A stretch of 64,000 nucleotides of DNA from Methanosarcina sp. ERenArc_MAG2 (GTDB lineage: Archaea; Halobacteriota; Methanosarcinia; Methanosarcinales; Methanosarcinaceae). The notes below the pieces were generated by a model. It was given only the letters and a program-made list of their open reading frames with translations. It was not told the DNA's origin and searched no databases. Made by a program: the position numbers and the translations under genes. The stretch spans positions 372,001-436,000 of the forward strand of contig JAMXHR010000010.1 in assembly GCA_023955635.1 (NCBI GenBank), given 5' to 3'. Of the stretch, positions 16,191 to 62,674 are shown piece after piece (position 1 is the first letter of the stretch; every line of letters begins with the position of its first letter).

Positions 16191-17643
16191 TCACTCGATA
16201 GCCTTCTCACTTACTTTTTCCGGGAAACCCATATATTCAAACGTCCGATTCCGTATCCAGATCATATTCGGCTCCCGGGAAGAGCCGTTATTTTGTGTCG
16301 GCTCGGCAAAGGTAAGTGAAAATACAATCCTTCCGCCGGCCCCGATCCCTCCGAGGATCAACGGGACTATCTCACTGATTGCCGGCAAAAAGACCATGCG
16401 ATCGATCCAGAGATTTCCGTACGTCACTTGGAGATTGAGTCTCCCTAAATTTGAAGGAATTGTACCAGGAGTCATGTTTTCATAATTGCGTGTAAACGAA
16501 AACGCCACATTTTTCTTATCCCGGGCAAACCGTGACAGGTTGTCGGTCCGGGAATACGCTTCAGGAGTAACTTTAAAAATGGTCCAAAACTGGCAAAAGC
16601 ATCAATGAAGGACGGCTCAAAACCCAGGACTTCCAGACCTGTCGAGTCCAATTTTTCCACACGTTTGTGTACCTCTTTATGCAAAACAGCAACATTCTCC
16701 CAGAAGGGCTTTTTTGCATCATAGGTATACGAGAAGCGCGGAGCTCCGACACAGAGGCAGAATACATCGCCAACCTGTGTAGTTGCATGTCTTCTCAGGT
16801 CAAAGGGGACAGAAACCAGCTTGAAGTTTTTGGTAAATGGGCCTGATATATCATCATGTGCTGCAATACATGCTGCAGTCACTGCCGACCCTACCGAAAC
16901 TCCTTCCTTCCTGCATTTTTCTGAAAAAATCTTTGACTCCTGGGGATCAAGCTCGATTAATACAGCGCCACACTGCTTTTTTCCCAGTAAGCCCTGGTGA
17001 TCGCAGCATAATCGGCCTGGAAAAAGTAGTGTGGGCTCTTTCTCCATTTCCTGTTGGCATTGTACACAAAAAACCGGGTGAGAATTGCAGCGACAGAAAA
17101 ACCACTTTTTCTTGGAAGTAATTTCATAATGTCAGGAGGATTGAGTACAGCGACCTTGCATTCAGGATCAGCGTAACTGATTAAAATATCCCGGACCAGA
17201 TTTGCCAGTGCCCTCCCATCACAGATACTATGGTTACACATAATGATAAGGTCTGACACGTCAGGGGAATGCAACAGCACGAACCGAATCAACGGACCTT
17301 TTTCCAGTTCAAACGGGATCCTGTGTTCACATTGAATCTCTTCAAATCACTGAGTATCTGAAGTCCTCTTTATAACCCTTAATGGAAGAGCAGGAACATT
17401 ATCATTGGAAAACCAGGCGTCATGCCGGTCGCCAAATACAATCTTCGCTCCGACCAGCGGATGTATACGACGGACCGTATCCAGTGCACGGAGCAGCTCC
17501 TGTTCCGACACATTTCCGATAATCCGTGAAACAATCGATACATTATACCCCGGAGTATGTAGGAAAACACGCTCAAGATTGGTCACACGGCGTATACATC
17601 CCGGAATTTCCGCATTCTTATCCGCATGTTCATTCTGTGTCAT
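16191..17643 (-). pseudogene. Condensation/alcohol-acetyltransferase-type acyltransferase with one nonsense codon
   Basis: The condensation-type active-site motif HxxxDG appears as CNHSICDGRAL. Start at 17643 (MTQNEHADKN). An in-frame TGA at 17347-17349 sits where a Trp would fit (TQxFEEIQCEH, then FELEKGPLIRFV). Two further frame breaks are repaired by adding one base to homopolymers at 16977-16982 and 16575-16579, giving YWEKKQCGAVLIELDP and FFKVTPEAYSRTDNLSRF. The corrected protein is about 484 aa. Members of this superfamily transfer acyl groups to alcohols or amines. If the TGA is also an error the gene is intact. Methanosarcina reads UAG, not UGA, as pyrrolysine, so no recoding is expected. 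Confidence 0.7.
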
Positions 17644-24384: not shown

Positions 24385-25199
24385 TTACTGCCACATAACC
24401 TCAAGGGGCTTCCTGAGGGGGATTCCATATATTTTGTACTGTGGGTGGCCGAACATCATTGCGTAGGCACTTTTCCGTCCTGCTGGTAGGTCGAGTTCCT
24501 TTTGGAGAGGCTCATAAGAGGTTGCAGCCGCTGCAACAAAGCCTGCCCAGCAGGTGCCGATACCGAATGCCGGAGCAGCGACATCGAAATGGGTGAGGGC
24601 GATGATAGCATCGACAACTGCAACAGGGTTTCCTTCAGGAATATGGGCAAAGAGCAGGTGAGAAGCGCCACGGCAGATGACATCGTTTCCTTGCTCCCAC
24701 GCCGAAATAAGCATCGGTACGTATCCGCTCATCGGATGGGCGGTGTTCAGCAGATTCTCCATCCATTCGATAGTGAGCTCGGCAATTTTCCGGACTTTTT
24801 TGGATCCTGGACAACCAGCCAATGCACCGGCTGACCGTTGCCTCCAGATGCGGCGTAGCGGGCAATATCAAGGACTTCAAGGATTTTCTCTTTTGGCACA
24901 GGCTCTCTGGTAAAATGCCGCACAGACCTGCGTTTCTTGAGGTATAACTCCATGTCCTCTGGAGAGACAGTGCTTGCACCGGCCAGCAGGGGAACCTTCT
25001 CATCGGGGAGATTCAAGAGAAGAGCCTGAGATGGGCAGAAAGCCTCGCAGTGTCCGCAATAGAGACAACGTGCAACGTTTGCTTCCTGCGTTTGTGGGAG
25101 ATGAGCCTCATCAGCTGAATCGATAATGCCTGATGAGCATACCTTTGCACAAATGCTGCACCGTGTGCAAAGATCCTGATTAACAATAATGTGAGTCAT
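24385..25199 (-). CDS. Ferredoxin-domain nitroreductase (one apparent frameshift)
   Basis: The N-terminal 2x[4Fe-4S] domain shows CTRCSICAKVC and CLYCGHCEAFCP. The nitroreductase domain follows with KKRRSVRHF (FMN phosphate binding) and, in the other frame, TCWAGFVAAA and KSAYAMMFGHPQYKIYGIP. The frame breaks at six T on the plus strand (24796-24801). One added base gives VQDPKKVRKIAELTIEWM and a ~270-aa protein of normal length. Start 25199 (MTHIIVNQDLC) is preferred over the one three codons upstream. Such proteins use ferredoxin electrons to reduce nitro or quinone-like compounds. Confidence 0.88.
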
Positions 25200-25310
25200 A
25201 AGTATCAAAACCTGCTAATAGCAATATATAATCAGCCAATATTTATTTACTTTTCTTTATTTCTCTACATGTGAAGTTTCACTTACTCGGTCACTGCCTG
25301 CACAAGGAAA

Positions 25311-30159: not shown

Positions 30160-32117
30160 TTATTCTGCCTTTTTACATATTTTTTCGTAGACATTGGAAT
30201 TTGCAATTCCTTCGAAAATAAACCTGGTTTCAAGAGGATTTTCGCCTGCATGAGTCATTATATCTATTTTTTCTACATTAACCGTAACCTGACCAGGGGA
30301 GAACCCTGCCTCTGTCATGTAATCAAGAACCAGTTTCCTCCCAAAACCTTCAGCAAATTCCATTGCTTCGCTCCTGATAACAAAATGCCGCCTTCCTGCA
30401 GGAGTGTATACAAAGATCCCTTTTGTCCTGAGATCATACCTTGACTCACTGTAAAGCGTACGCACCGTTATTTCAACCCTTTTTGTCCCCTTTCCTGCGA
30501 GAGCTCCAGCTGCATTTCCTACATCGGAATATTCAGGAACAATAATTTTGATATCAATCAATTCATTGAGTTCATTTACATACGCTTTGACCGGGCCTCC
30601 AAGGAGGACAACAGGAATATCCACCTTAAAACGGGAGAAAAACTCTCCATCAAGTATTTTCCCGATTTCGGCCCTATCCACGCCTTCCATCAGAAACGCA
30701 AGGAGGTCTTTTGCCATATTCCTGGCAAAAAGCCTCTTTACGTTTATACAGAATTCGTGCCTGCCAGTCCCTATGAAGTTTGCAAGCAGACCAGCCCCTA
30801 TTTCCGAGGCTTCGGAATTCCATTCCGTATATTCTCCAAGCACATGGAGGGCATCTGTAGGGGTAAAACCTATTGCCTGGATAAGCCGCTTCCGGATTAG
30901 AGAATCCATTACTTTCTTCGAAGGGAGAATATTTCTATCCCAGTAGACGTCTTTGAGGGAAAGCGGTTCATTTTTTATATGGGAAAGGAGTTCTTCTTCT
31001 TCCCGGCTCAAATTGACAGGTTTTTGCTGTGTCCGGACAAAGAATTTTGTTGCCTGGATATGCTCGTTCAGTTTGAGCCTGTCCGGAATCCAGCGTTTTT
31101 TCAGGGTACTCATGAAATCGGGATACAGGACTGCTGCCCTGCAGAGCGGGATAACCCGCATTGGACCTATGTTTATATTGCTGCCCTGCACCCAGATATG
31201 GCTGTCCCCGCCCATGGCTGAGGTCTCCATGCGCAACGCCCTGACTTTGGTTTGCCAGCCGCCTACAACTGCTCCTGTTTCGCTGAGGTAAGGAAGCCCC
31301 TTATAGATCATCGAGACATCCGTGCTCGTTCCTCCCACATCAATGACTGCGCAGGTCTCAAGCCCGGACAGGTAAGAGGCCCCGAGAAGGCTTGCAGCAG
31401 GACCGGAAAAGACCGATTCTATGGGTCTTTTCATGGCTTCGTGCATGCTCACTACAGATCCGTCACAGCGAAGCATGGCAATTCTCGGGTTGAACCCTCT
31501 TCTCCCGATCTCACTTACTACCGTCTTCAGGAAGCTCTCTGCTACAGGTAGGAGCTGGGCATTCAGATAGGCTGTAACTCCCCTTTCGTAGGCTCCGAGA
31601 GACTGCGCAAGTTCGTGCCCGCAGACGGCAGGCAGTCCTGTAAGTTCGTGGATCAGGGCTCTTACCCGCAGTTCATGCTCCGGATTTCGTACGCTGAAAT
31701 AGGAGGATACTGCAAAAGCCGAGACTCTGTCCTTTATCTCAAGCACGAATTTTTCTACTGCGAAAAGGTCCAGAGATGCGGTTTCGTCCCCATTGCTGTC
31801 GTGTCCCCCTGTATCTTTATGCAGTTTTCAATCCCAGAATCTGCTGGGATATCATAATCCCCAATAAGGATCAACCCTACAGGATGCCCTGTTTTTTCGA
31901 GGAGAGTATTTGTAGCAAGAGTAGTCGAAACCGACACGGTAGTCACGAGTTTCAACTTTTCCCCGTCGAGTCCGTCAATTGACTCCTTTATTCCCTCAAG
32001 AGGTTCAGGATACGTTGTAAGTGCCTTGTTAGAACATACAACTTTTCCATCCGAGTTCCGGATTAAAACCGAATCCGTATATGTCCCACCGGCATCAATG
32101 CCCAGACCGTATGCCAT
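30160..32117 (-). CDS. Hydantoinase A/oxoprolinase-family protein, paralogue 1 (one apparent frameshift)
   Basis: ATP-dependent ring-opening family related to N-methylhydantoinase A and 5-oxoprolinase. The N-terminus GIDAGGTYTDSVLI is the phosphate-1 motif of the actin-like fold; VIDVGGTSTDVSMI is the second. The frame breaks at five C on the plus strand (31805-31809). One added base gives KIQGGHDSNGDETASLDLFA, matching KGGHDHHGAELVSLDMEA in the intact paralogue. The corrected length is about 653 aa. Both paralogues are on the same strand, 285 bp apart, with no hydantoinase B partner nearby, so the substrate is uncertain. Confidence 0.87.
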
Positions 32118-32402
32118 TTTTAAGATCTCCTTCTGTTTACTTTGATTGTGCCATTTGTAATGCTTTCTAATGTATTTGTGGTGTAATTTGCAGTATAATT
32201 CTGCTATCCTTACGCCATACCTGCGCCATCCACGTCATCTTTGATGTGCCGCCGTCCCTGAGAGAACAGGCCATAAGTCAATTCGGTCTGCCCTGCTGAA
32301 GATCCGTTTTTCAGAACCGGATTTCGAGTTCGGAAACAGGATGTGGATAAAATTAATTTTTAAGTAATTGCCTTAAAGAGTTGTCCTGAATACTCAAAGG
32401 TC

Positions 32403-35456: not shown

Positions 35457-36411
35457 ATGCAAGCAATTGAGGTATCTCATCTAATCAAAAAATTCGGCTC
35501 TCTTACAGCACTCAATGATATTAATTTCTCAGTTGAGGAGGGAGAAACATTTGGTTTTTGGGTCCCAATGGTGCTGGCAAGACCACTACCATTCGTATTT
35601 TGACCGGAATTTCGAGACCTACATCTGGAAAGGCAACCATTTTTGGCCATGATATTGAACACGATACTATTGCTGCACGGCAGTCCATGGGTATTGTGTC
35701 CGAGAACTCAAACGTGTACGATGACCTGACTGCATGGCAGAATATGATGTTCTCCGCTGAACTTTACCATGTGGGACGAAAAGAGCGAGAAAAAAGGCAA
35801 ACGAGCTTCTCAAGAAGTTCGAGTTATACGACCGGCGCAACGACAAAGCTCACGGTTTTTCAAAGGGAATGAAACGGCGTCTGACGCTTGCGATGGGACT
35901 GGTCAACAGCCCGCGCCTTCTGTTCCTGGACGAACCCACCTCAGGGCTCGATGTACAGAGCAATCTCATTATCCGGGATGTGGTCACGGATCTCGTCCGC
36001 GAGGGTGTCACGGTTTTTTTAACGACGCACAATATTGAGGAGGCAAATATCATGTGTGACCGGGTAGCGATCATCAATAAAGGAAATATTGTTGCAATCG
36101 ATGCACCTGAATCCTTGAAAAAGACCATCCAGAGTATGCAGTCGATCGAGGTCTCGTTTGACCACAATTCTGCAGATCAGCTGGATGAATTACGCCGTCT
36201 CCCCATGGTGAATAACGCACAAAAAGAAGGTGACAAGTTTAAGCTCTATACTGAAGATCCATCTGAAGTTATCGATGCCATGATGGCTTACGCCCATGTA
36301 CACAACCTTAAAGTGATAAGTATCACGACTCTTGGCCCGAGTCTCGAGGATGTATTCATACGGTTGACAGGTCTGCAGAGGGCAGGTGATGGAGTCCGTG
36401 CAATCGATTGA
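35457..36411 (+). CDS. ABC-2-type transporter ATP-binding protein (two apparent frameshifts)
   Basis: Starts at 35457 ([16 protein letters not shown]). The Walker A motif [14 protein letters not shown] follows only if one T is added to the T run at 35555-35559. A second break at six A (35790-35795) is repaired the same way, giving [19 protein letters not shown]. The signature is [13 protein letters not shown], Walker [13 protein letters not shown], and the H-loop TTHNIEEA. The corrected length is about 319 aa. It overlaps the permease gene downstream and forms an export system, probably for drugs or lipids. Confidence 0.9.
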
Positions 36412-37399: not shown

Positions 37400-38135
37400 A
37401 TGAATAAAAAAGACAGCATCAAAGCCTGTGGCAGGACAATAAACTACGAAATAGTATACAGTAAGAAACGGAATAAAGCCTCAATTGTAATCAGTCCCGA
37501 CCTGAAAGTTGAGTTCCGGGCTCCGCATGGCATTAGTTCTGAAACTATAAGAAAGATGGTTAATGAGAAGGCCGAATGGATACAAAAAAGCTTGAATGGT
37601 TCGAGGTAAACAGGCTGCCTGATCACAAAAAGCAGTATTGTGAAGGTGAAATCTATCTTTATCTCGGCAGGGAATATCCTTTGAAAATCATAGCCTTCGA
37701 TGATGTTAAAGAACCCATCGTATCTGTTAAAGATTCTGAACTGAATTTCGTAGTCCCAAAAAAGCTTCTGAAGACATGCTTCCTCTCCTGATAAAAAAAG
37801 CTGTCTGGAATTTCTATAGCAAGCGTGCCGAAGAAGAAGTCGAGAAGATTCTGAAGGTTTATTCAAAAAAACTCGGGATAGCTCCTCCGACTTTTAAGGT
37901 AAAGCATCAGAGAAGGAGATGGGGAAGTTGCTCTGCAGACAATGTTCTCAGGATTAACTTTCAGCTTGTAATGGCCCCGCCCGAACAGCTTGAGTACGTG
38001 GTAGTGCATGAACTCTGTCATGTGATTGAGAAAAATCATTCCGCAAGGTTCTGGAAACTGGTCAAACAACTGATGCCTGATTATGAAGTATACAGGAAAA
38101 GCCTGAAAAAAGAAGGCTGGAAATATATGCTTTGA
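37400..38135 (+). CDS. YgjP/SprT-like zinc metallopeptidase (two apparent frameshifts)
   Basis: The C-terminal part has the zinc motif VVHELCHVIEKNHSARFW and the family signature QRRRWGSCSADNVLRINF. The gene is split into three frames. Adding one A to the runs at 37584-37589 and 37758-37763 gives EWIQKKLEWFEVNRLPD and VVPKKASEDMLPLLIKKA, producing a continuous protein of about 245 aa, normal for the M48-related DUF45 family. Start 37400 follows GAGGAAG. The TGA stop lies within the 4-bp target duplication of MITE A. Confidence 0.87.
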
Positions 38136-49154: not shown

Positions 49155-50516
49155 ATGAAAATTTTCTATTTAAAGCAGGACTTTACTGTACAACAATGGC
49201 TTGAGATAGTAAATATTAGGGAAAACACAATAAATAGTTACCTACTTGGTATGCAAGCTTACACTGAGTTTACTAATAAGAATCCTGAACAATTGCTAAA
49301 CGAAGCCGATAAAGAACAAGACGATAACATAAAAGTCAGAAACAGGGCTGTAAACAAATATCTGTATGGATTCAGGAACCACTTGCAGCAACAAGGACTT
49401 GCACCACTAACAATTAAAAATTATATTAATGGTGCTAAATCATTCTACAGGGCTTTCGACATTGAATTTAAATCAGTTAAACAAGAGGGAGTCACTGTAA
49501 AACAAGAAAACAGGAAAATACCAACTATTGAGGACATCAGGGACGTTTTGAAAGTCTGTGATCCTTTTGAGAAAGCGTTAATCTTAGTTGGTTGCAGTAG
49601 CGGACTAGACGGAAGCACAATCTGTAATATTACAGTCGAACAGTTTAAAAAAGGGTATGATTCCAAAACTGGCATAACTACTTTAATTTTGCGAAGACAA
49701 AAGACTGATGTGGACTTTGTAACTTTTTTAACTCCAGAGGCTTCTGAAGCTGTTTGGAACTATTTGAACTACAGAGCAAGAACCGTAGACACTACATTAA
49801 AAAACAGATTAGATCAACTTGCAAAACAAAAGGTTTATGCGGACACTAACTATCTGTTTATCCTCAGAAAAGTACATGTTGACTTTCTCAAAGATTTTGA
49901 CGAAGAGAAGCGAAAGATTAATAGATCTCCTTTAATGAAAATCTACCGTGAAATCTCCACAAAAGCCAATAAAAGTACAGAAAAAGGTAAATTTAACTAT
50001 ATACGCTCTCACAACTGTCGTAAGTTCTTTGATAGTACAATGCTCAATAATGGATGTGACTATCTCCACACAGAAGAGTACATGGGCCATGCTCTCCCAG
50101 GTACACAAGGACATTATTTTACACCTAATGTGGATGAATTAAAAACATACTATACTAAATTTATACCTTACTTGACAATTCAGAAAAAGCTAAATGTTAG
50201 TGAGTCTCCTGAATATCAAAGTATAAAAAGTGAAAATGATATACTCAGAGCAGAAACAGCTAAGCATGTTGTAGAGAGAAGCGAATTAACAGAATTAAAA
50301 GCAGAAATGGATAGAATAAAAGCAAGGGAATTAGAAGTTGAATATAATAAACAAGAGATTCAAAAAGCACTAGCAACTTTACATTCTACACCACTGCCAG
50401 AACTTGACCCAAATGCAACATCAGAAGAACGAGAAATGTATCAAAAAATGCTCAGTAAACACTATGAAAACCAGTCATATCTAAAGGCTATAAAAATGAT
50501 GGTCGATATGAAATAA
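49155..50516 (+). CDS. Tyrosine recombinase/integrase with C-terminal coiled coil
   Basis: The product is 453 aa. An N-terminal SAM-like core-binding domain (NTINSYLLGMQAYTEF, NHLQQQGLAPLTIKNYINGA) precedes the catalytic domain. Visible catalytic residues: RSHNCRKFF (HxxR) and EEYMGHALPGTQGHYF (late His and the nucleophilic Tyr). The first catalytic Arg, usually in a TGLRxSE motif, is not evident: the matching stretch is GCSSGLDGSTICNI with Asp instead. Either the Arg is supplied elsewhere or the enzyme is altered. A C-terminal coiled coil (ENDILRAETAKHVVERSELT) follows. GAGAGG precedes the ATG. It abuts the truncated acetyltransferase, as expected of an element integrase. No attachment site or tRNA was found. 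Confidence 0.85.
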   Translation: MKIFYLKQDFTVQQWLEIVNIRENTINSYLLGMQAYTEFTNKNPEQLLNEADKEQDDNIKVRNRAVNKYLYGFRNHLQQQGLAPLTIKNYINGAKSFYRAFDIEFKSVKQEGVTVKQENRKIPTIEDIRDVLKVCDPFEKALILVGCSSGLDGSTICNITVEQFKKGYDSKTGITTLILRRQKTDVDFVTFLTPEASEAVWNYLNYRARTVDTTLKNRLDQLAKQKVYADTNYLFILRKVHVDFLKDFDEEKRKINRSPLMKIYREISTKANKSTEKGKFNYIRSHNCRKFFDSTMLNNGCDYLHTEEYMGHALPGTQGHYFTPNVDELKTYYTKFIPYLTIQKKLNVSESPEYQSIKSENDILRAETAKHVVERSELTELKAEMDRIKARELEVEYNKQEIQKALATLHSTPLPELDPNATSEEREMYQKMLSKHYENQSYLKAIKMMVDMK

Positions 50517-51191
50517 TATAAGGTTCTCTGTGACTACCCTCAAAACATTTTATTTTTCTACTTTTTCAATATTCTTTCTTCTATCTAAATTTTTATTTCT
50601 ATGTCACGATAATAATAACAACAACTTAATCGTATCAGATTTTTTATATCTCTTAGTAAAATTTAAACACATGTCTGACGTAATAATATATAATGTTTGC
50701 GAAAGATTTTGATGAACTGCTGCAATATAATAATTAAATCTGTTCATATAGTTTGAGCTTATATTATATATACTCTAAAATTTACACATATGGACGTGAG
50801 TTTCTAAAAATGTGTGTTGCAGTAGATTTTTTAAGTTGGATTTAAGAAGTCAATTTCATCTCAAGGATGCAAGACTCTTTAACATTCCAAATAAAAAGAA
50901 AATAATAAAAACAACGGTTCCGTTGCAAAAAAATTATGAAAAGGATTTACTGAAATAATAGAAATGTAGGAGTATATGTTATGCCAGTAAATTCCTTTAA
51001 ATGGAAACATTATGCAGGGGAGATTATTTTACTAAACGTCAGATAGTACTTAAAATATTCACTAAGTTATAGAAATTTAAAGGAAATGTGGGACACTGCT
51101 TTCTGTAAATGCCCGAAAAGTGAGTTTTAAACAAAATATATTTTTACGGAATTAAATAATATTAACAGTTATATCCTTTAAATAATATATC
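50517..51191. other. AT-rich intergenic region with one IS6-like end
   Basis: No gene is supported. GGTTCCGTTGCAAAAA at 50916-50931 matches the terminal sequence found at 60417, 58158 and 62694, here without its partner. A TATA-rich promoter for the helicase gene probably lies near 51140-51175. Confidence 0.5.
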
Positions 51192-53153
51192 ATGGCTATG
51201 AATCAGACAAAGTTTATAGAATGCTGTGAACCAAGAATCCGATGTTTAGCAGGTCCTGGCACTGGTAAAACGTGGTCAATCAAGCAGAGAGTTAAAAGAT
51301 TATTGACCCAAGACGGAATAGAAGGTTCAAGAATATTTGCTGTAACTTTTACAAAACTTGCGTCACAACAGTTAAAAACTGAATTAACGGAAATGGAAGT
51401 TAAAGGCTCTGATGCCATTGTCGCATCTACTCTTCACTCTCACGCCCTTCGTATTTTAAACCATGAACAAGCAATTGAGAGCTTAGAAAGGGTTCCTCGC
51501 ATCTGCTATGAATATGAAATGAAACCTCTTTCTGCAGATTTAAGTATGGCATTTGAAGGGCGAATCAAACCCGTAGATGCCCTTTTCAAAAAATTTGAGA
51601 CTATGTGGGCTCGAAATCAATACGAGATAATACGTAGTGCTTCAAAGCCTGAAGAGATAATTTTTGAAGATGAATATCAATCTTGGATGCGTTTTCACAA
51701 TGCAATGACAGTTAAGGAGTTAATAACGTTAGCAGTTAAGTTCCTTAAACAAAATCCCATTAATGATGCTGTTTCTGAGTTTGATCACATAATTGTAGAT
51801 GAGTATCAGGATCTTAATTGGGCAGATCAAGCGCTGATTGAGTTAATCGGTAAGGATTCGAAAATTGCAATCTTAGGAGATGATGATCAGTCAATCTACT
51901 CCTTCCGTTATGCTGATCCGGATGGAATAAGGATTTGGTTATCGCGTCAAGAAACTAGAAAAGAGGATGTTCAATTAAATGTATGCAGAAGATGTGATGG
52001 AAATATAATCTCTATAGCAAATTCGTTGATAAGAAACAATAGTGGCAGAGGGGAGAAAAAGAATCTAGTCTCTGAGGAAGATAGAAAGGACATTGGAGAT
52101 GTGAATTTAGTTCAGTGGAACACGAGAGAACAAGAGACTAAAGGTCTTGCTTTAGGAATCAAAAAGCTATTGGAGAAAGACATGGTCCCGGTAGGCGAAA
52201 AAATACTCGTCTTAGTTCCGAGAAGAGATTTTGGGCAATACTTAGTGAAAGAACTTGAAAAACTCGGAGTAGTGGATGTTAACCTCCACACTAAACCCGA
52301 TTGGGAAAATAAAATTATGGGTGAGAATTTATCACTTCTAATATTACATGAAACTCCAGATGACCTTGTCGCACTTAGATACTATTTGGGATTAGGACAT
52401 GATAAATGGAGAAAAGTTGAATATAAAAAATTACGCCAATATTGCCAAGAAAATGATCTGGAACCTTGTGATATCCTAAGTAATCTTGAGTTATGTAACA
52501 AATTACATGTTAGTGGCTTGCGAAAGAGATGGGAAGAACTCCAAAGTAAACTAGAAGAGATATCTGATGTAAATCAAGATGAATTGCTTGATTTACTTTT
52601 GCCATTGGAGGGACCTACAAAAGAGATTTCTGAAAAAGTTAGATATATGAAACAATTTGATACAGAAAATAAAAATATTAAAGATTTACTTACTGAAGCA
52701 ATTGTTTCTATTGGAGAGGAAACTGATAAACATAAAGTGAACATTATGACTATACATGGAGCTAAAGGGCTAACTAGTCATACTGTGATATTAACAAGTC
52801 TTATCAATGGACTATTGCCTAGAAATCCCAATCCTAAGAGTAATGACGATATATCAAAATTTGAAGAAGAAAGAAGGCTGTTATATGTTGGATTAACTCG
52901 GGCTAAACATAGATTAGTTTTTTCTTCTTTTAGAAAAATCAAATCTAGTGAGAGTCAAATATTAAATTTATCACTTAATAGCAGAGATCGTTATTGCAAT
53001 ACAACCTCAAGTAAATTCATTTCAGAGTTCAGTCCAGATATTCTTCCGGTTTTAGCTGGTGATAAGTGGTTGTTTTCGTTTGATTCACATAAAGTCTTAG
53101 AGGTTGTCTTAAAATTCAAACCATTTCTACAATTGGATAATAAGCAACATTAA
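51192..53153 (+). CDS. UvrD/Rep-family (superfamily 1A) DNA helicase
   Basis: The product is 653 aa, intact. Helicase motifs in order: CLAGPGTGKTW (Walker A), AVTFTKLASQQLK (Ia), ASTLHSHALRI, IIVDEYQDLNW (Walker B), ILGDDDQSIYSFR (III), MTIHGAKGLTSHTVI (V) and EEERRLLYVGLTRAKHRLVF (VI). It is shorter than housekeeping UvrD and resembles solitary or GajB-like helicases of defence islands; no OLD-type GajA partner is adjacent. The last ~17 residues (VVLKFKPFLQLDNKQH) are encoded by a MITE (53101 onward), so the native C-terminus was replaced. Confidence 0.9.
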   Translation: MAMNQTKFIECCEPRIRCLAGPGTGKTWSIKQRVKRLLTQDGIEGSRIFAVTFTKLASQQLKTELTEMEVKGSDAIVASTLHSHALRILNHEQAIESLERVPRICYEYEMKPLSADLSMAFEGRIKPVDALFKKFETMWARNQYEIIRSASKPEEIIFEDEYQSWMRFHNAMTVKELITLAVKFLKQNPINDAVSEFDHIIVDEYQDLNWADQALIELIGKDSKIAILGDDDQSIYSFRYADPDGIRIWLSRQETRKEDVQLNVCRRCDGNIISIANSLIRNNSGRGEKKNLVSEEDRKDIGDVNLVQWNTREQETKGLALGIKKLLEKDMVPVGEKILVLVPRRDFGQYLVKELEKLGVVDVNLHTKPDWENKIMGENLSLLILHETPDDLVALRYYLGLGHDKWRKVEYKKLRQYCQENDLEPCDILSNLELCNKLHVSGLRKRWEELQSKLEEISDVNQDELLDLLLPLEGPTKEISEKVRYMKQFDTENKNIKDLLTEAIVSIGEETDKHKVNIMTIHGAKGLTSHTVILTSLINGLLPRNPNPKSNDDISKFEEERRLLYVGLTRAKHRLVFSSFRKIKSSESQILNLSLNSRDRYCNTTSSKFISEFSPDILPVLAGDKWLFSFDSHKVLEVVLKFKPFLQLDNKQH

Positions 53154-53705: not shown

Positions 53706-55550
53706 TTAAGATAATGAATCTAACTGGAAGAAGCCATATCTTCCAAAATCTGGATTGTGAGTAAAATGATGATATGTAATTTTATCCAATAAATCCTCTG
53801 AAGGATCCTTATTATCAAGAACAATAATTTGAAAGTCATGTGTAATAGATGCAAGATCCTTGTAAAATCCTTCTTTAATAGAAACCTTTACTTCATCATC
53901 TTTCTGTCGTGCATCTCCTCTCGATATGTGGTAAGAGGAGAATCAATCACTAGGCAACATGGATGGTAAGTTTCTTGAATCCGACAGTATTTCATTAAGC
54001 AAATCAAAAACGCACTACAAAGAATAGCCCTATATCCCTTTCCATAATTGCCCCTAGCCTTACCATTTATAATGAAATCCATTTTATTGATGTCAAAAAC
54101 TAAATTATCTACTTTCATTCCCCACGTATTTAATTGTTGTTTCATTTGGTCGGCTAGTTTTTGATAGTGGACTTCTGGTAGTCTTCTATTATCTGTTTCA
54201 TCATTTTTTTCTCAGCGAGTTTCAGTTTATACTCCTGAAGTTCAATCTCATAACGGGAAACAGCTTCTTTTGTATCTGCAAGTCTGGCTATGTCTTGATT
54301 AAGTGTTATAAATTTCTCAAAATCCTCTCTAAGCACTTTATTTATTGGTTTCAATTTGTTCTCAATTAAAATGCTTAGTTGACTTAGTGATTGCTGAAGT
54401 TCCGATTTACTCTTAAGATAATAATTTAGTTCTTCTTTTATATCATTTTCAGTCGAGAGTAGTTCTTCTCTTTTAATAGATATTTTTATTTTTTCATGAT
54501 TCATTGACTCGATAAGTTTTTCGTTACTCTGCTCTAAATAATTTTTAATTTTTATTGAATCTATGGTAGTTCCACATATTGGACAGGGCACACTAGGAAG
54601 TTGCGAGAGTAAATATTCTCCTTCAAGCATAAACTCAAGTCTATTAATATCTGATAGATAGTGAGCATTAAGTATTGAAAAACGTTGTACCAGTTCCCTT
54701 AAATGAGTTATATGAGAATCAATGTGAAAAATATTTTTTAATATATACGTTCGTTCATTTTCCTCATTACTGATCCGTTGATTAGATTCATTAATACTTC
54801 TACTAAGCTCATCGATTTTAATATTCATTTCTTTTTGGCTGAGTTTTGCAACTTTTTCAGATAATATAACATCTTTTTCCTTTTCAGATTCCAATAGGCG
54901 CTCTGTTAACTCTATCTTACCTTTAATCATGCTTTTGTAAAGTTTGGGATCATCAATGGAAGCTAAATTTTCGTCATCTTCGCCTGAAAGGAACAAATTA
55001 AACAATGATTTTTCAACCGTTCTCTCTGAATATTGACCTTCATATATAGGAGAACGTTCTGCAGTAATTTCATTTTCATCTATCAAAAAAGTTTTTTAAC
55101 GTCGCTAAACCTTATTGGTCTTTTTTTATCTTTTTTTCCTTTAATTGCTTATTATGCAGCCCAATAAGTTTTAGTAAAAAAACAGAAATGTTGTCTTCTC
55201 TTTTACTGCTGTGACTAGAAGATAGACTTTCTATTAAAATATTGTTGTCTGCCTTATCAATTTCCCCTTCTGTCATATATATAGTAGAGTCTTGAAAAGT
55301 ACGTTTAAGAGTATACTTCTTGCCATTATAGCAATTTAACTGCATCCAGACACATTCATAACCTTCTGCTTCTTCTATATCCTTGGGGGGTATCGCCACC
55401 CATTAGGTAGTTTATGCAACTAAAAATGTAGGATTTTCCTGTATCTGATGGACCTGATACCACATTTAGACCCTTATCAAAGTCTATGACAGCATCATTT
55501 TTGCCAGAACCCGTAACTTTTATTAACTTTATGTAGAAACCCGGTATCAT
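53706..55550 (-). CDS. ABC-three component (ABC-3C) system ATPase, SMC-like (several apparent frameshifts)
   Basis: An ATPase of a biological-conflict system. Walker A is GPSDTGKSYIF near residue 32, a long coiled coil follows with a zinc-hook-like CPICGT, and the distal ATPase half has GKGYRAILCSAFLICL and LVIDSPLTTY (Walker B). The C-terminus ends in ITYHHFTHNPDFGRYGFFQL. The frame breaks are at 55386-55391 (one base too many in G6), 55131-55137, 55085-55090, 54204-54210 and near 53903 (each one base short). The corrected protein is about 614 aa. The upstream genes are the middle component and the CTD component, overlapping by a few bases. Confidence 0.85.
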
Positions 55551-56035
55551 GATGAATGTGTCTCCTCAATAAATTCACTTCCCCAATTAGTTAAGTTGTT
55601 TTTTATAAAAGAATCGAGTTGTTTATCAGTCATATTATTAAATTTTTTAATAACAAGGTCAATCCTATTAATTAATTCTTGAGAATATTCACTTCTAAAA
55701 TATTCAATGAAATTTATTGCGCTCTTATTAGCAAGAAAGTTTACTCCTGTTTTATTGTATTTGATAGCAATCAGTTCCTTTGCTTGGAGCAAATGAAGCC
55801 CCTCTTGTATCACTTCGCGTTGGATGATTATCTGACAAGAGCGGTTTGGTATAGCTGGATGTAAACTTTCGACTTCTTCAGAAAAGTCTCCTGTATGTAA
55901 AGCCAGGTAGTTATAATAAATGAGTCTTTGAGTATCCAATGACTTAGGGTATACTTTAGCTAAAATAAATAGAGTACGTAATCCAGATTCAAGTGGACTG
56001 TTGAAAAGAGTTATTTTATCTATTTTGTCGTCCAT
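55547..56035 (-). CDS. ABC-3C system middle component
   Basis: The product is 162 aa, intact. NSPLESGLRTLFILAKVYPK, QRLIYYNYLALHTGDF, LHPAIPNRSCQIIIQREVI and GLHLLQAKELI match the middle-component (MC) family as I recall it. A winged-helix fold is expected. It overlaps the ATPase start by 4 bp and the CTD gene end by 16 bp, indicating a tight operon. Confidence 0.85.
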   Translation of the reverse strand: MDDKIDKITLFNSPLESGLRTLFILAKVYPKSLDTQRLIYYNYLALHTGDFSEEVESLHPAIPNRSCQIIIQREVIQEGLHLLQAKELIAIKYNKTGVNFLANKSAINFIEYFRSEYSQELINRIDLVIKKFNNMTDKQLDSFIKNNLTNWGSEFIEETHSS

Positions 56036-56620
56036 ATTATATCATCGCGCTCGTTTGCTAAATGATGGCATATCCCTTGCTTGTCTTGTGGGAGAAGTTC
56101 ATCTTTGAGTGCATTTCCCTCAAAAGGTATTTGAGAAGCCACAGTCAATGTACTATCAATTTTACTCTTACAGGAACAGTGATGACTTTCAATAACAGGT
56201 ATAATGCTGTAATAAATACCTTCTTTTAGTTCCTCAAAAGCAGTTGATCCGGGAGGCAGATTATCTCTACTAAATTGCTTTAGCATTTCCGCAGAATAGT
56301 AAATTTCTCTTTGCCTATTGAGATGTCGAAGTAACTTTTCATTTTTATTCAAATCATCTTTATGTGATATTTGCTTACTTTCGTCTTCTGAATAAGCATT
56401 GAATAATTTCTTGATATATATCTGCTCGCTCTTTTTTATCATTTTGGAAATTGTTACAATCTCTCTAGGTTTAACCTTTAATCCACCACCAAATCGTGGA
56501 GCATAATAGACTGTCTGTTGAAGTTGATCAATTATCTTTTCTGCTGGAATGATACGGAAAATAGAAAAGTCACATTGATCAATAAATGCTTTTAACTCTG
56601 GTGTAAGTTCTATCCGCTTA
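56020..56620 (-). pseudogene. ABC-3C system CTD component, 5' end lost at an IS5-family insertion
   Basis: Reads RIELTPELKAFIDQCDFSIF, then RIIPAEKIIDQLQQTVYYAP, RFGGGLKV and, near the end, QGICHHLANERDDIIW. These are the hallmarks of the C-terminal domain shared by ABC-3C proteins (RFGGGL and GICHHLAN). In intact systems this follows an N-terminal effector domain such as a nuclease or peptidase. Here the frame is open up to the IS end at 56621, and on the far side of the IS the sequence does not continue it. The effector domain is therefore missing. Confidence 0.82.
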
Positions 56621-58157: not shown

Positions 58158-58233
58158 GGTTCTGTTGCAAAAAATCTGGCTCCCTTGCAAAATCAGCAAA
58201 AACCTTCACAATTAGTAAATTTGAGTACTCTCA
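58158..58233. repeat. Left end of an IS6-like MITE (family G), truncated
   Basis: GGTTCTGTTGCAAAAAATCT followed by GGCT and CAGCAAAAACCTTCACAA parallels the left 60 bp of the element at 60417. The rest of that element is absent and MITE H-like sequence begins at 58234. Confidence 0.5.
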
Positions 58234-58372
58234 TTAAGAGCCTATCCAAAAAGTGGTTACCTGCTATAACTTTTACAATATGTAATATGCAAAATCGGAA
58301 TGGATACCCTGATATCATAGACCTATTTTAACTTTTCAACATGCATTACTGACTTTTCGGATAGGCTCTTAA
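58234..58372. mobile_element. MITE with TTAAGAGCCTATCC ends (139 bp)
   Basis: Perfect 14-bp inverted ends at 58234-58247 and 58359-58372. It has no coding capacity. Its ends resemble family H, but the interior differs. Confidence 0.75.
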
Positions 58373-58436
58373 TACGGGGTATGGCAACGATTCTTTCTTT
58401 TTGGAGCCACTTAATAAACATAGAATGAACCTTTAT

Positions 58437-58649
58437 TTACAAATCTTTATTAAGATAATTTTTATTCCACACAATTTTTGATTTTCCTCTTTTTTCGGCA
58501 ACGCCTCCAAAAATTTCAATCTGCTTAATTCGTTTTAATCTATTTTTTTCTATTGTACATACTAGTTCGGGAATTAAACCTGAATTCACTAGTTTTCTTA
58601 TTCTAAAGTCTTCTGAATAAACACATATATGTATGTAACCAATTAACAA
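58437..58649 (-). CDS. Hypothetical 70-aa protein downstream of the HEPN-like gene
   Basis: Reads from a TTG at 58649: LIGYIHICVYSEDFRIRKLV, then IPELVCTIEKNRLKRIKQIE. It follows the HEPN-like gene by 14 bp on the same strand, so it may be co-transcribed, but it has no clear ribosome site. It could be a small partner protein or the remnant of a longer gene. Confidence 0.4.
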   Translation of the reverse strand: MLIGYIHICVYSEDFRIRKLVNSGLIPELVCTIEKNRLKRIKQIEIFGGVAEKRGKSKIVWNKNYLNKDL

Positions 58650-58663
58650 ATACCGAGAAATGT

Positions 58664-60076
58664 CTATTTTTCTTGCTTTTTTCTCGCACTCTTAATCACA
58701 TTTTTGATTATTAATTCATAATTCTCTCTTATTAAATCATCAAGTGTAGAATTTTGAGTTACTTTCACAATTACCACCCCTTTTACGATGCTATAAAAGC
58801 CATTTCTATGAATCATTGTGTCTCTTATTTCGAGGGATATGGGATTGAGAGCAACCTTCATTTCAGCTATTTTTAGAGGCACATGAATTCTAAAACTTGA
58901 TACCAAAGTTGAAAATTTTAAAAATATTTTGGGCACTTTTAATTTAGGAACAAAAAAGATTAAGTTGTCTTCAAGAACATTTGAATAATCAGTTGTTTTG
59001 GTATTATTTTGAGTCCTTTGCTTTTTCAATTCTGTGCCATTAAATGCAGCCCATCCTAACAATGAATATTTTGAGATAAGTTGAAAAAAATATCTTTCAT
59101 AACCAGGAGCATATTTTTCAGCTAGGAACGCCGAACGAAAAACATTAAAATTTAATTTTAAGGGATCAAGAAAAGTATTTTGAGAAATAATCAACAACTG
59201 GCTTCTGTTATCAACAGTTTTTGACTCAAAGCATCTCTTGATTTCCCATCCTGGAGCATTTAACTCAGCTTTTAACTCTTCTATTACTACGGGAAAAGGA
59301 ATTTTAATTCCATATTTTTCTAAAAGATCAAGATTTGTGAAGTAAAATAAACGAAGTCCAAGGGATAAACCGTTGCAAATATCGAGCATTTCATCGAAAA
59401 AATCGATTATTCGTCTAGAGTTCATGTCCAAAGACACATTTTTATCGTGATATATTGTTGTGCTTGGAGGTTTATATGTAATTTTTCCGTGTGCTATAGC
59501 ATTTCTAATCGCATTGCAGTAAGGACTTGTTAAATAATTGTACTTAGTAGTTTGTTTCAATTCTTCAACTCGCTGAAATAAATCAAATCCTTCAAGCTTT
59601 GCGCTTCTTTTAATTCTTTGATAACAGCTGAGAGGAAATATCAAATTTGAATATGTTGCTTCTGTTAACCTCAAATAAGAGGGATGGAAGTAAGTGTCCA
59701 ATAATGTAATTAGTTCATATTCATTGGGAGGTACTTTTGTATCGTGAAAATTTAAGGAGTTAATGTCTTCTAGTGATGTTAACGCAAAAAAGGAATAATT
59801 ATTAAATTCATTAAGAATCAAAAGAAGAGACTGGATGTCATTTGATTTAAGATCTTCAAGGAATTGAAAGATATCGTAACAAGCTTGTTTCTTATAAAAT
59901 TTTTCAGGTTTATGTTCAATATATTTCCATAGTGATAAATACTTTTCGTGTGTACACTCCTTCAATAGTGGGATTTCAGAGACGATTTCCTTTAACCTTA
60001 CTTTTTGCAACTCTTTGGTTAAATGATTAGTTCCAAAAAGTTTTTCTAAATCTACATGATCTTTATTGGATACCAT
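58664..60076 (-). CDS. Uncharacterised 470-aa protein with a HEPN-type RX4H motif
   Basis: The family is not recognised. It is helical, soluble and lysine-rich. Residues 191-196 read RNAIAH within CNAIRNAIAHGKITYKP, which fits the RX4-6H active-site motif of HEPN ribonucleases and the typical RN.IAHG context. The C-terminal ~200 residues are mixed alpha/beta (FVPKLKVPKIFLKFSTLVSS). It sits in an AT-rich accessory region among conflict genes, so a defence RNase is a reasonable hypothesis. The codon use is very AT-rich. Start: ATG 60076 with a weak upstream region. Confidence 0.6.
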   Translation of the reverse strand: MVSNKDHVDLEKLFGTNHLTKELQKVRLKEIVSEIPLLKECTHEKYLSLWKYIEHKPEKFYKKQACYDIFQFLEDLKSNDIQSLLLILNEFNNYSFFALTSLEDINSLNFHDTKVPPNEYELITLLDTYFHPSYLRLTEATYSNLIFPLSCYQRIKRSAKLEGFDLFQRVEELKQTTKYNYLTSPYCNAIRNAIAHGKITYKPPSTTIYHDKNVSLDMNSRRIIDFFDEMLDICNGLSLGLRLFYFTNLDLLEKYGIKIPFPVVIEELKAELNAPGWEIKRCFESKTVDNRSQLLIISQNTFLDPLKLNFNVFRSAFLAEKYAPGYERYFFQLISKYSLLGWAAFNGTELKKQRTQNNTKTTDYSNVLEDNLIFFVPKLKVPKIFLKFSTLVSSFRIHVPLKIAEMKVALNPISLEIRDTMIHRNGFYSIVKGVVIVKVTQNSTLDDLIRENYELIIKNVIKSARKKQEK

Positions 60077-60165: not shown

Positions 60166-60325
60166 CAGGCTGTCTCAAAACTCGACCCATTTCTACAATT
60201 AGATAATGGGCATTGTTGACTTTAAACTCAAATAGGAAATTATTCCGAAATTCAGGTATAAATTAACCTTATAGTAGAAGATTTTATCCCAAATGTAGAA
60301 TTAAATGTAGTTTTGAGACAGCCTG
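60166..60325. mobile_element. MITE family F, copy 2 (160 bp)
   Basis: The ends CAGGCTGTCTCAAAACT and AGTTTTGAGACAGCCTG are nearly perfect inverted repeats. The interior aligns with 53101-53377 once the nested MITE is removed. Confidence 0.85.
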
Positions 60326-60416: not shown

Positions 60417-60565
60417 GGTTCCGTTGCAAAAAATCCGGCTGTTTTACCAAACCAGTGAAAAACATCACAAATGGGATATTTATATGCCATAAACATGCCA
60501 ATAATGATACAAAAAGCAATAGTTATAGCCTAAAAAGGCAGTAAAATTATTTTTGCAACAGAACC
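60417..60565. mobile_element. MITE family G with IS6-like ends (149 bp)
   Basis: GGTTCCGTTGCAAAAAAT and ATTTTTGCAACAGAACC are inverted ends of the GGTTCTGTTGCAAA type typical of IS6-family elements. It overlaps the last five codons of the pentapeptide-repeat gene. Confidence 0.8.
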
Positions 60566-61791
60566 CAATTAGGTCTTTTAAAAAGGGCAGGATATTTATC
60601 TTTTAGTAGTATGAAGAGTTCTTCGTTTAATTTTGCATTATAAAGCGTTTTTACATTGGAAAGTTGATTAAATGATAAATTCTGAGTCTTTTCAAGATTA
60701 ACTCTTTCAAGATTAGCTCCGTTAAGGTTAGCTTCTTCAAGATTGGCTTCTTCAAGATTGGCTCCTTCAAGATTAGCACCTTGAAGGTTAGTTTCTGTAA
60801 GGTTAACCCCTTGAAGTTGAGCTCCGTTAAGGTTAGTCCCCTTAAGGTTAGCCCCCTTAAGGTTAGCCTCTGCCCAATTATCTTTTTTTCGAAATTTAGC
60901 CCCCTTAAGGTTAGCCTTTTGAAGATTAGCCTTTTGAAGATTAGCCTCTGCAAGTTCAGCATTTTGAAGGTTAGCTGCTACTAGAAGGTTAACCCCTTTA
61001 AGGCAAGCATTTTGAAGATTGGCCCCTTGAAGTTTAGCTTTTTCAAAGACAACTCCTGAAAGTTTAGCCCCTTGAAGGTTAGCCCCTTGAAGGTTAGCCC
61101 CTTGAAGGTTAGCTCCTTCAAGATTAACCCCTGCAAAGTTAGCCTTTTGGAGGTCAGCTTCTCGTAGATAAGCTCCTTGAAGATCTAAACCATTCGTCTC
61201 TCCTAAATTAAAGGAACACCTGCGTCTTTTAATGACCGTAAGAATCGCTGAAATATCCAAAGATATATTTTGTTCAATGAGTGAGTTTTTCCTAATATAA
61301 GCCGTTAAAATTTCCATAATTGACCAGTAGTCTTTATCGGATTCCTTTGAAATTCTTTCAAGAGCATATATTCCACCTAATTTTTTTACCAATGAAGAAT
61401 TATCTCCTAAAGAATTATCTCCTAACTGATCAATAGCCTTAGTAAAACGTTCAGTTATCTGGCCTTCCTTGGCAATTATAATATTTTCCCAAGTGAAATA
61501 AAGACCAAATAATAGAACACCACCACCAATTAGTTGAGCTAGCGTAGTAAAGAATTGAATGAACGTAACACGGTACTGGTTTTCGAGATCGGCTTTGGAT
61601 GTGGTGTTAGTTATTTCATACCTAGACACTTGAAACTCTGGGATTATTTGTACAAATGCGAAAAAAATGAGTATGAATATAAATACCAAAAATATATACT
61701 TTCCTGGACGTTGCCTCGCCTTCTCATAAACTACTGATAAAGAAGGAATTTCAGCTTTTTTATATTTTTCATTTGACTCCCTTAATGCCAT
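60547..61791 (-). CDS. Membrane-anchored pentapeptide-repeat protein
   Basis: The product is 414 aa. Two hydrophobic segments (about residues 33-52, YIFLVFIFILIFFAFVQII, and 92-114 around LAQLIGGGVLLFGLYFTW) are followed by a linker with ERFTKAIDQLGD. Then about 35 pentapeptides of the A(N/D)LxX type (EGANLQGANLQGANLQGAKL) form a right-handed beta-helix. Similar membrane pentapeptide proteins with the ERFTKAIEQLG linker are common in bacteria and methanogens. Some act as defence or channel-gating modules, but the function here is unknown. The last residues VLLQK and the stop codon come from the end of MITE G, so the native C-terminus was altered. Confidence 0.87.
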   Translation of the reverse strand: MALRESNEKYKKAEIPSLSVVYEKARQRPGKYIFLVFIFILIFFAFVQIIPEFQVSRYEITNTTSKADLENQYRVTFIQFFTTLAQLIGGGVLLFGLYFTWENIIIAKEGQITERFTKAIDQLGDNSLGDNSSLVKKLGGIYALERISKESDKDYWSIMEILTAYIRKNSLIEQNISLDISAILTVIKRRRCSFNLGETNGLDLQGAYLREADLQKANFAGVNLEGANLQGANLQGANLQGAKLSGVVFEKAKLQGANLQNACLKGVNLLVAANLQNAELAEANLQKANLQKANLKGAKFRKKDNWAEANLKGANLKGTNLNGAQLQGVNLTETNLQGANLEGANLEEANLEEANLNGANLERVNLEKTQNLSFNQLSNVKTLYNAKLNEELFILLKDKYPALFKRPNWVLLQK

Positions 61792-61843: not shown

Positions 61844-62042
61844 GACTCTGTTTCAAAATCTAGTGATTTTTGCATTTCTTGATTGAAATTCTGAATTCGT
61901 AAGAAGAATCGGGTCTTTAATCAAAATTAATATTCGAGATCTAAAGACTTCAATCAAGAGAACATGTTCAAAGAATTATAACTAATTTCAAAATTCAGTG
62001 ATTTTTTAGTTTACACCAATCACTGGATTTTGAAACTGAGTC
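61844..62042. mobile_element. MITE family E, copy 2 (199 bp)
   Basis: Inverted relative to 28866-29064 and the same length. The ends are GACTCTGTTTCAAAATCTAG and a close inverted match ending TGAAACTGAGTC. Confidence 0.82.
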
Positions 62043-62416: not shown

Positions 62417-62674
62417 CTAGTGCATCGATTCCAAAGTATGTCATAAATGAATTTTTTGAAAACCGCGGAAAGCACGGAAGATACGGAAATAAGTAGTAAA
62501 AGCGTGGTTCTTTCGTGCTTTCTGTGTTTTCCGTGGTTGTAATATCCAGATCGAATCACTCTGCGACCAGCTCGTTTTCCTTGTTATAAAATTCCATGTG
62601 ACTTAAAATAATATTTGCGTCATAAGCTGTAATTATTTGCTTATTATGTATTTATTTGAGAATCGATGCACTAG
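62417..62674. mobile_element. MITE family B, copy 3 (258 bp)
   Basis: Same ends as the copies at 21024 and 41111, with about a 3-bp insertion near the middle. It interrupts the open frame begun at 62336. Confidence 0.9.

What the first reader, a model, noticed from the sequence alone, without database searches (positions are those of the whole stretch)
58437..60076. Unrecognised 470-aa protein with a HEPN-like RNAIAHG motif
HEPN ribonucleases share RX4-6H, and the sequence CNAIRNAIAHGKI fits the motif and its context. The rest of the protein matches nothing I know. Its setting next to an ABC-3C system and small membrane genes suggests a defence RNase. A 70-aa frame 14 bp downstream could be its partner.
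Basis: partly seen in the sequence, partly recalled or inferred. Interest (0 to 1): 0.6.

Follow-up and report, generated by a model that had tools for sequence, protein, structure and literature searches.

The report
Rare, mobile HEPN-like RNase family candidate
The window holds one copy of a rare, uncatalogued, horizontally moving protein family whose most strictly conserved motif matches that of HEPN RNA-cutting enzymes, so it is probably an unnamed anti-virus RNase; the small 'partner' gene is really its own tail, cut off by a probable sequencing deletion.

Summary
The 470-aa frame and its R191-NAIA-H196 motif are real. The 70-aa 'partner' is not a second gene: homologues that reach this region carry the same sequence as their own C-terminus, so the gene encodes about 545 aa, broken here by one missing base. 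That break is probably an assembly error: 9 of 29 conserved genes checked in this assembly are frame-broken, all 14 breaks being 1-base deletions.

I found eight relatives: six archaeal, two on Bacillota plasmids. Pfam, NCBIfam, PADLOC, PHROGs and PDB hold no significant match. Across all nine sequences R, N and H of RNxxxH are invariant: three of only seven invariant columns. The gene is sporadic (0.4-3% of genomes searched), has no conserved partner, and keeps 28-35% GC even where its archaeal surroundings have 38-52%, so it travels. Some copies sit beside CBASS, a Schlafen-type defence candidate, or nuclease genes.

Best reading: an unnamed HEPN-type RNase family, probably a one-gene defence effector whose C-terminal module also occurs on a different protein. 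Activity, trigger and target are inferred.

The parts
58664..60076 (-). First 470 codons of the gene: N-terminal helical region, HEPN-like core and most of the C-terminal part
   Evidence: ORF; homologues L002, L005, L010, L021 (51-64% for the closest), purifying selection by codon position
59489..59506 (-). R191-N-A-I-A-H196, the RNxxxH (Rx4H) motif, candidate RNase active site
   Evidence: R, N and H invariant in all nine sequences of alignment A3
59660..59662 (-). E139, conserved acidic residue upstream of the motif, candidate for the HEPN helix-2 acidic residue
   Evidence: E in 8 of 9 sequences, Q in L014; helix placement only from a low-confidence model
58650..58690 (-). Reading-frame break in an A-rich stretch; one base fewer than a continuous frame
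   Evidence: Continuous frame in homologues; 14 of 14 breaks elsewhere in this assembly are 1-base deletions
58437..58649 (-). C-terminal end of the same protein (the '70-aa partner'), ending in the WN motif of the C-terminal module
   Evidence: Profile A3 matches it at positions 464-540; 53-55% identity to C-termini of L021 and L010

Best explanation
The gene encodes a protein of about 545 aa belonging to an unnamed family of HEPN-type RNases. A helical region around residues 115-250 carries the catalytic R191-N192-x3-H196 motif and probably works as a dimer, as HEPN RNases do. The C-terminal 150-170 residues (ending in a WN motif) form a module that also occurs on another protein and probably senses or binds the trigger. 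It would act as a one-gene defence effector: silent until a virus or plasmid is sensed, then cutting RNA without metal and stopping growth. Shown: the family, the invariant motif, purifying selection, the colinear C-terminus, the patchy and AT-rich mobile distribution, the absence of a conserved partner gene. Inferred: HEPN fold, RNase activity, dimer, trigger, defence. In this assembly the frame is broken, most likely by a sequencing deletion.
For: RNxxxH invariant in nine sequences from archaea and Bacillota, 3 of 7 invariant columns; residue after R is N as in most HEPN families (PMC3710099); upstream acidic residue in 8 of 9. Two subfamilies aligned over 477 columns, E 1e-14. Gene GC 28-35% against 38-52% around it in archaea; two plasmid copies; rare and patchy. 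Neighbours: CBASS cyclase and 4TM effector in Priestia, Schlafen-like PDC-S50 candidate in Leuconostoc, NucS-like nuclease in G446. C-terminal module shared with another protein family.
Against: No significant match to any HEPN profile: pEK499_p136 E 0.027 on one member only, hhalign prob 0.4% with pEK499_p136 itself, 0.3% with an LA2681 protein and not at the motif. Structure models unusable. PADLOC does not know the family. Defence neighbours come from few loci without a control set. Several archaeal copies stand among housekeeping genes.
Confidence: 0.58

Rival explanations
1. A HEPN-like fold that has a binding or regulatory role (RNA or nucleotide binding, or an accessory of other defence systems such as CBASS) rather than RNase activity.
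For: Many HEPN domains are not toxins; in Priestia the gene lies downstream of a CBASS operon that already has an effector.
Against: R, N and H are invariant in all nine sequences, unlike HEPN families that have lost activity.
Confidence: 0.15
2. Not a HEPN protein: RNxxxHG belongs to an unrelated fold (for example another enzyme or a DNA-binding protein).
For: No profile or fold match to HEPN.
Against: Motif spacing, the N after R, and the upstream acidic residue agree with the HEPN definition; helices before the motif are at least compatible (weak).
Confidence: 0.2
3. In this organism the gene is a dying pseudogene: the one-base break is real. (Compatible with the family being a HEPN RNase elsewhere.)
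For: The three closest relatives each carry one lesion: an in-frame TGA in L002 and in L010, an IS insertion in L005, and TGA is an ordinary stop there.
Against: 1-base deletions are everywhere in this assembly, about 14 in 30 kb of conserved coding DNA; the rest of the gene is under purifying selection.
Confidence: 0.25
4. A programmed -1 ribosomal frameshift at the A-AAA-AAG heptamer joins the two frames.
For: The heptamer lies in the right frame just before the stop (sequence), and a slip there gives the right length.
Against: Homologues read through this place in one frame; the same kind of break occurs all over the assembly.
Confidence: 0.03
5. Two-gene toxin-antitoxin pair, 470 aa plus a separate 70-aa partner.
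For: Two abutting frames on one strand.
Against: The 70-aa frame is the C-terminus of the homologues; no conserved small neighbour gene in relatives.
Confidence: 0.01

Closest known systems
HEPN superfamily RNases (Pfam clan CL0291; PMC3710099), nearest by weak score pEK499_p136 (PF18736)
   Same: Rx4H motif with N after R; acidic residue upstream; mobile, defence-type settings
   Different: No significant profile match (E 0.027 for one member); about 510-565 aa with a large C-terminal part, whereas pEK499_p136 is 166 aa
ApeA and Abi-type single-gene HEPN defence proteins (from general knowledge and PMC3710099)
   Same: Would work alike: one large protein, HEPN motif, no partner
   Different: Motif lies in the middle of the protein, not at the end; no Pfam or PADLOC model of those families matches
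Unnamed protein family A8 (L076-L078 in archaea, H40 in Paenibacillus)
   Same: Shares the C-terminal module with subfamily A5 (hhalign E 9.5e-8, prob 94)
   Different: Different N-terminal domain and, in two of the three, an extra C-terminal region; no library match; direct comparison with the window's own subfamily not significant

Membership tests
HEPN superfamily RNase | Rx4-6H motif with polar residue after R | tested here: met
   R-N-x3-H invariant in all nine sequences
HEPN superfamily RNase | Conserved acidic residue before the motif (helix 2, in many families) | tested here: inconclusive
   E139 kept in 8 of 9, but its place in helix 2 rests on a low-confidence model; the usual Ex3[KR] form is not obvious
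HEPN superfamily RNase | Four-helix up-down bundle with the motif at the end of helix 3 | tested here: inconclusive
   Models with mean pLDDT 36 and 43, fold search meaningless
HEPN superfamily RNase | Significant profile similarity to a known HEPN family | tested here: not met
   such similarity is often weak between HEPN families, so this lowers but does not exclude membership
HEPN superfamily RNase | Metal-independent RNA cleavage dependent on R and H | not testable with these tools
   Needs biochemistry
Toxin-antitoxin pair (HEPN/MNT type) | Conserved adjacent antitoxin gene | tested here: not met
   No neighbour shared between loci; the 70-aa frame is the C-terminus
ABC-3C defence system | Being one of its components (ATPase, middle component, CTD) | tested here: not met
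   No ABC-3C Pfam match for this protein while neighbours match MC2 and CTD6; an IS transposase lies between; no ABC-3C gene seen beside the other family members

The most novel reading that the evidence does not exclude
A new class of single-protein immune RNase, shared by methane-cycling archaea and Bacillota plasmids, in which a HEPN effector is joined to a C-terminal recognition module that is also attached to other effectors, so that the module would be a general sensor of invaders.
Probability: 0.25. Interest if true: 0.65.

Novelty: new variant of a known kind. Interest (0 to 1): 0.42.

Why it matters
If right, a coherent HEPN-type RNase family that current defence libraries miss is ready for a direct test, with intact plasmid-borne members in Priestia and Leuconostoc that can be cloned. 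The module shared with a different protein points to a possible common sensor. It is also a caution: in uncorrected long-read assemblies a lost base can make a protein's tail look like a partner gene.

Tried and rejected
Partner-gene idea: rejected by the homologues. Halocatena plasmid hit (E 3e-3): lies inside a gene annotated cytochrome P450, taken as chance. Viral contigs: six scans, no relative; phages none. Structure: the predictor's rule admits only the window and loci from certain tools, so only the window and L002 went in; models are poor and the PDB fold search is meaningless. PF18736 search in relatives rang nowhere, controls included, so uninformative. dN/dS could not be computed (saturation); codon-position identities were used instead. 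A second motif R418-DTMI-H423 is kept only in the close relatives (L002, L005, L010) and lost in L021, so not a family feature. Literature searches found no description of the family, in an open-access library only.

Full report
OBSERVATION. The frame at 58664-60076 (-) is real, starts with ATG and encodes 470 aa with CNAIRNAIAHGKI, R191 to H196. Neither the protein nor the family profile matches Pfam, NCBIfam, PADLOC, PHROGs or PDB significantly. R-x4-6-H alone is not informative (71% of shuffles of this protein contain it), but RNxxxHG is (0.06%).

ONE GENE, NOT TWO. In the Methanococcoides MAG relative (L002, 64% identical) and in L010 and L021 the protein continues in the same frame into the sequence that the window carries in the 70-aa frame 58437-58649. 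Profile A3 finds both window frames as the two halves of one match, positions 1-472 and 464-540. The protein is therefore about 545 aa, and the two frames are separated by one missing base in an A-rich stretch near 58650-58690.

WHY THE BREAK IS PROBABLY TECHNICAL. I took 360 kb plus the window and 40 kb beyond it from the same contig, and 400 kb of a complete genome of the same genus (G077). Of 29 conserved G077 genes found in the window's assembly, 9 are split between frames, 14 changes in 30 kb; the reverse comparison gave 2 of 31. All 14 are 1-base deletions in the window's assembly, many in or beside homopolymers. At that rate a gene of 1.64 kb has a 53% chance of at least one break. The host genome is also listed as only 88% complete although it is in 18 contigs, which lost frames could explain (inference). 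A true pseudogene is not excluded: the three closest relatives each have one lesion, an in-frame TGA in L002 and in L010 and an IS inserted near the C-terminus in L005, while TGA is an ordinary stop in those regions. Intact members exist: L021, L011, L020, L013, L014.

THE FAMILY. Homologues: L002 and L005 (same family as the host), L010 (same order), L011 (same class), L021 and L020 (same phylum), and plasmid genes of Priestia megaterium (L013, hypothetical protein WP_318619393.1) and Leuconostoc mesenteroides (L014, WP_140683465.1). Identity to L002 runs from 64% down to 15%. They form two subfamilies (A6: window, L002, L005, L010, L021; A5: L011, L020, L013, L014), which align over 477 columns with probability 98.4 and E 1e-14. 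In the nine-sequence alignment seven columns are invariant: N105, Y133, R189, N190, H194, R326, I420 in L002 numbering. Three of the seven are the motif residues; chance about 4e-5 for a given 6-column window. E138 (E139 in the window) is kept in 8 of 9. Dense, universal conservation of RNxxxH amid otherwise diverged sequence is what a catalytic motif looks like.

HEPN OR NOT. [quoted passage not shown] The first is met. The second is plausible. The bundle could not be tested: only the window and L002 could be given to the predictor under its stated rule, and the models have mean pLDDT 36 and 43, so the PDB search means nothing. Their secondary structure (helices before the motif, motif at a helix end, then a hairpin and a long helix) is compatible but weak. 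Profile similarity to known HEPNs is not significant; the paper notes that HEPN families share little beyond the motif. I therefore file it as probably HEPN, not as an established member.

C-TERMINAL MODULE. The last part (A5 columns about 335-545, ending WNPN) is shared with another family in three archaeal genomes (L076-L078) and a Paenibacillus plasmid, with a different N-terminal domain. For the window's subfamily the direct comparison is not significant, so the link rests on the A5-A6 homology. A module carried on two different N-terminal parts suggests a sensor or targeting domain (inference).

SETTING. Each archaeal copy sits in a different place and I saw no shared neighbour. Gene GC is 28-35% whereas the archaeal loci have 38-52%; the contrast is greatest in L021 (31 against 51%) and L011 (30 against 52%). 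This, the patchy distribution (3 of 112 genomes in the family, 7 of 393 in the phylum sample, 1 of 232 in the order of G400) and two plasmid copies show a travelling gene. Neighbours of defence type: CBASS cyclase and 4TM effector in Priestia, Schlafen-like PDC-S50 candidate in Leuconostoc, a NucS-like nuclease in G446 and, by eye, a type IIG-like restriction enzyme there and a Fic-like protein beside L011, and the ABC-3C system in the window, separated by an IS transposase. With nine loci and no control set this is suggestive only. In the window the gene lies among five short elements with terminal inverted repeats that occur in several copies in the contig.

MECHANISM. Most likely a one-gene immune RNase: the C-terminal module senses an invader, the HEPN part (probably dimeric) cuts RNA with H196 and R191 in the active site, and growth stops. 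Shown: gene, motif, selection, mobility, absence of a partner. Inferred: fold, activity, trigger, defence.

NOVELTY. I found no description of the family in the libraries or open-access papers searched. It would be a new variant of a known kind (HEPN RNases), not a new category. Interest is moderate because activity is untested and the family is rare, but intact plasmid members make it easy to test.

Noticed in passing
whole contig, e.g. window 16194-17643, 24388-25202, 30181-32120, 35457-36408, 37400-38132: The assembly loses single bases often: 9 of 29 conserved genes are frame-broken, all 14 breaks 1-base deletions. Any split or truncated gene in this window should be read with that in mind.
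   Followed up: yes
53888-56442 (-): ABC-3C defence system with CTD6 and MC2 components; its presumed ATPase is split over four frames (53888-54145, 54154-55086, 55112-55399, 55356-55550), probably by the same kind of deletions.
   Followed up: partly
58233-58373, 60166-60325, 60417-60565, 61844-62042, 62417-62674: Five short elements with terminal inverted repeats (MITE-like), four of them present in several copies within 464 kb of the contig, cluster around the gene.
   Followed up: partly
L002 codon 363, L010 codon 85, L005 1258-1414: Each of the three closest relatives carries exactly one lesion (TGA, TGA, IS insertion) in an otherwise intact gene; could mean the gene is costly to keep, or chance. 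Not explained.
   Followed up: partly
L076, L077, L078; H40 (Paenibacillus plasmid), H41 (Enterococcus): Second uncatalogued family sharing the C-terminal module; its N-terminal part has an AFVLKGKS stretch that looks like a PD-(D/E)XK nuclease by eye only. In Paenibacillus an LA2681-family HEPN gene lies about 0.9 kb downstream.
   Followed up: partly
L013 4641-9548: Priestia plasmid: CBASS cyclase (SMODS) and 4TM effector followed by two unknown genes and the family member, all on one strand; possibly one defence cluster.
   Followed up: partly
49155-53153 (+): Tyrosine-recombinase-type integrase followed by a UvrD-like helicase; a possible island boundary.
   Followed up: no
60547-61791 (-): Pentapeptide-repeat protein with hydrophobic N-terminal segments upstream of the gene.
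   Followed up: no
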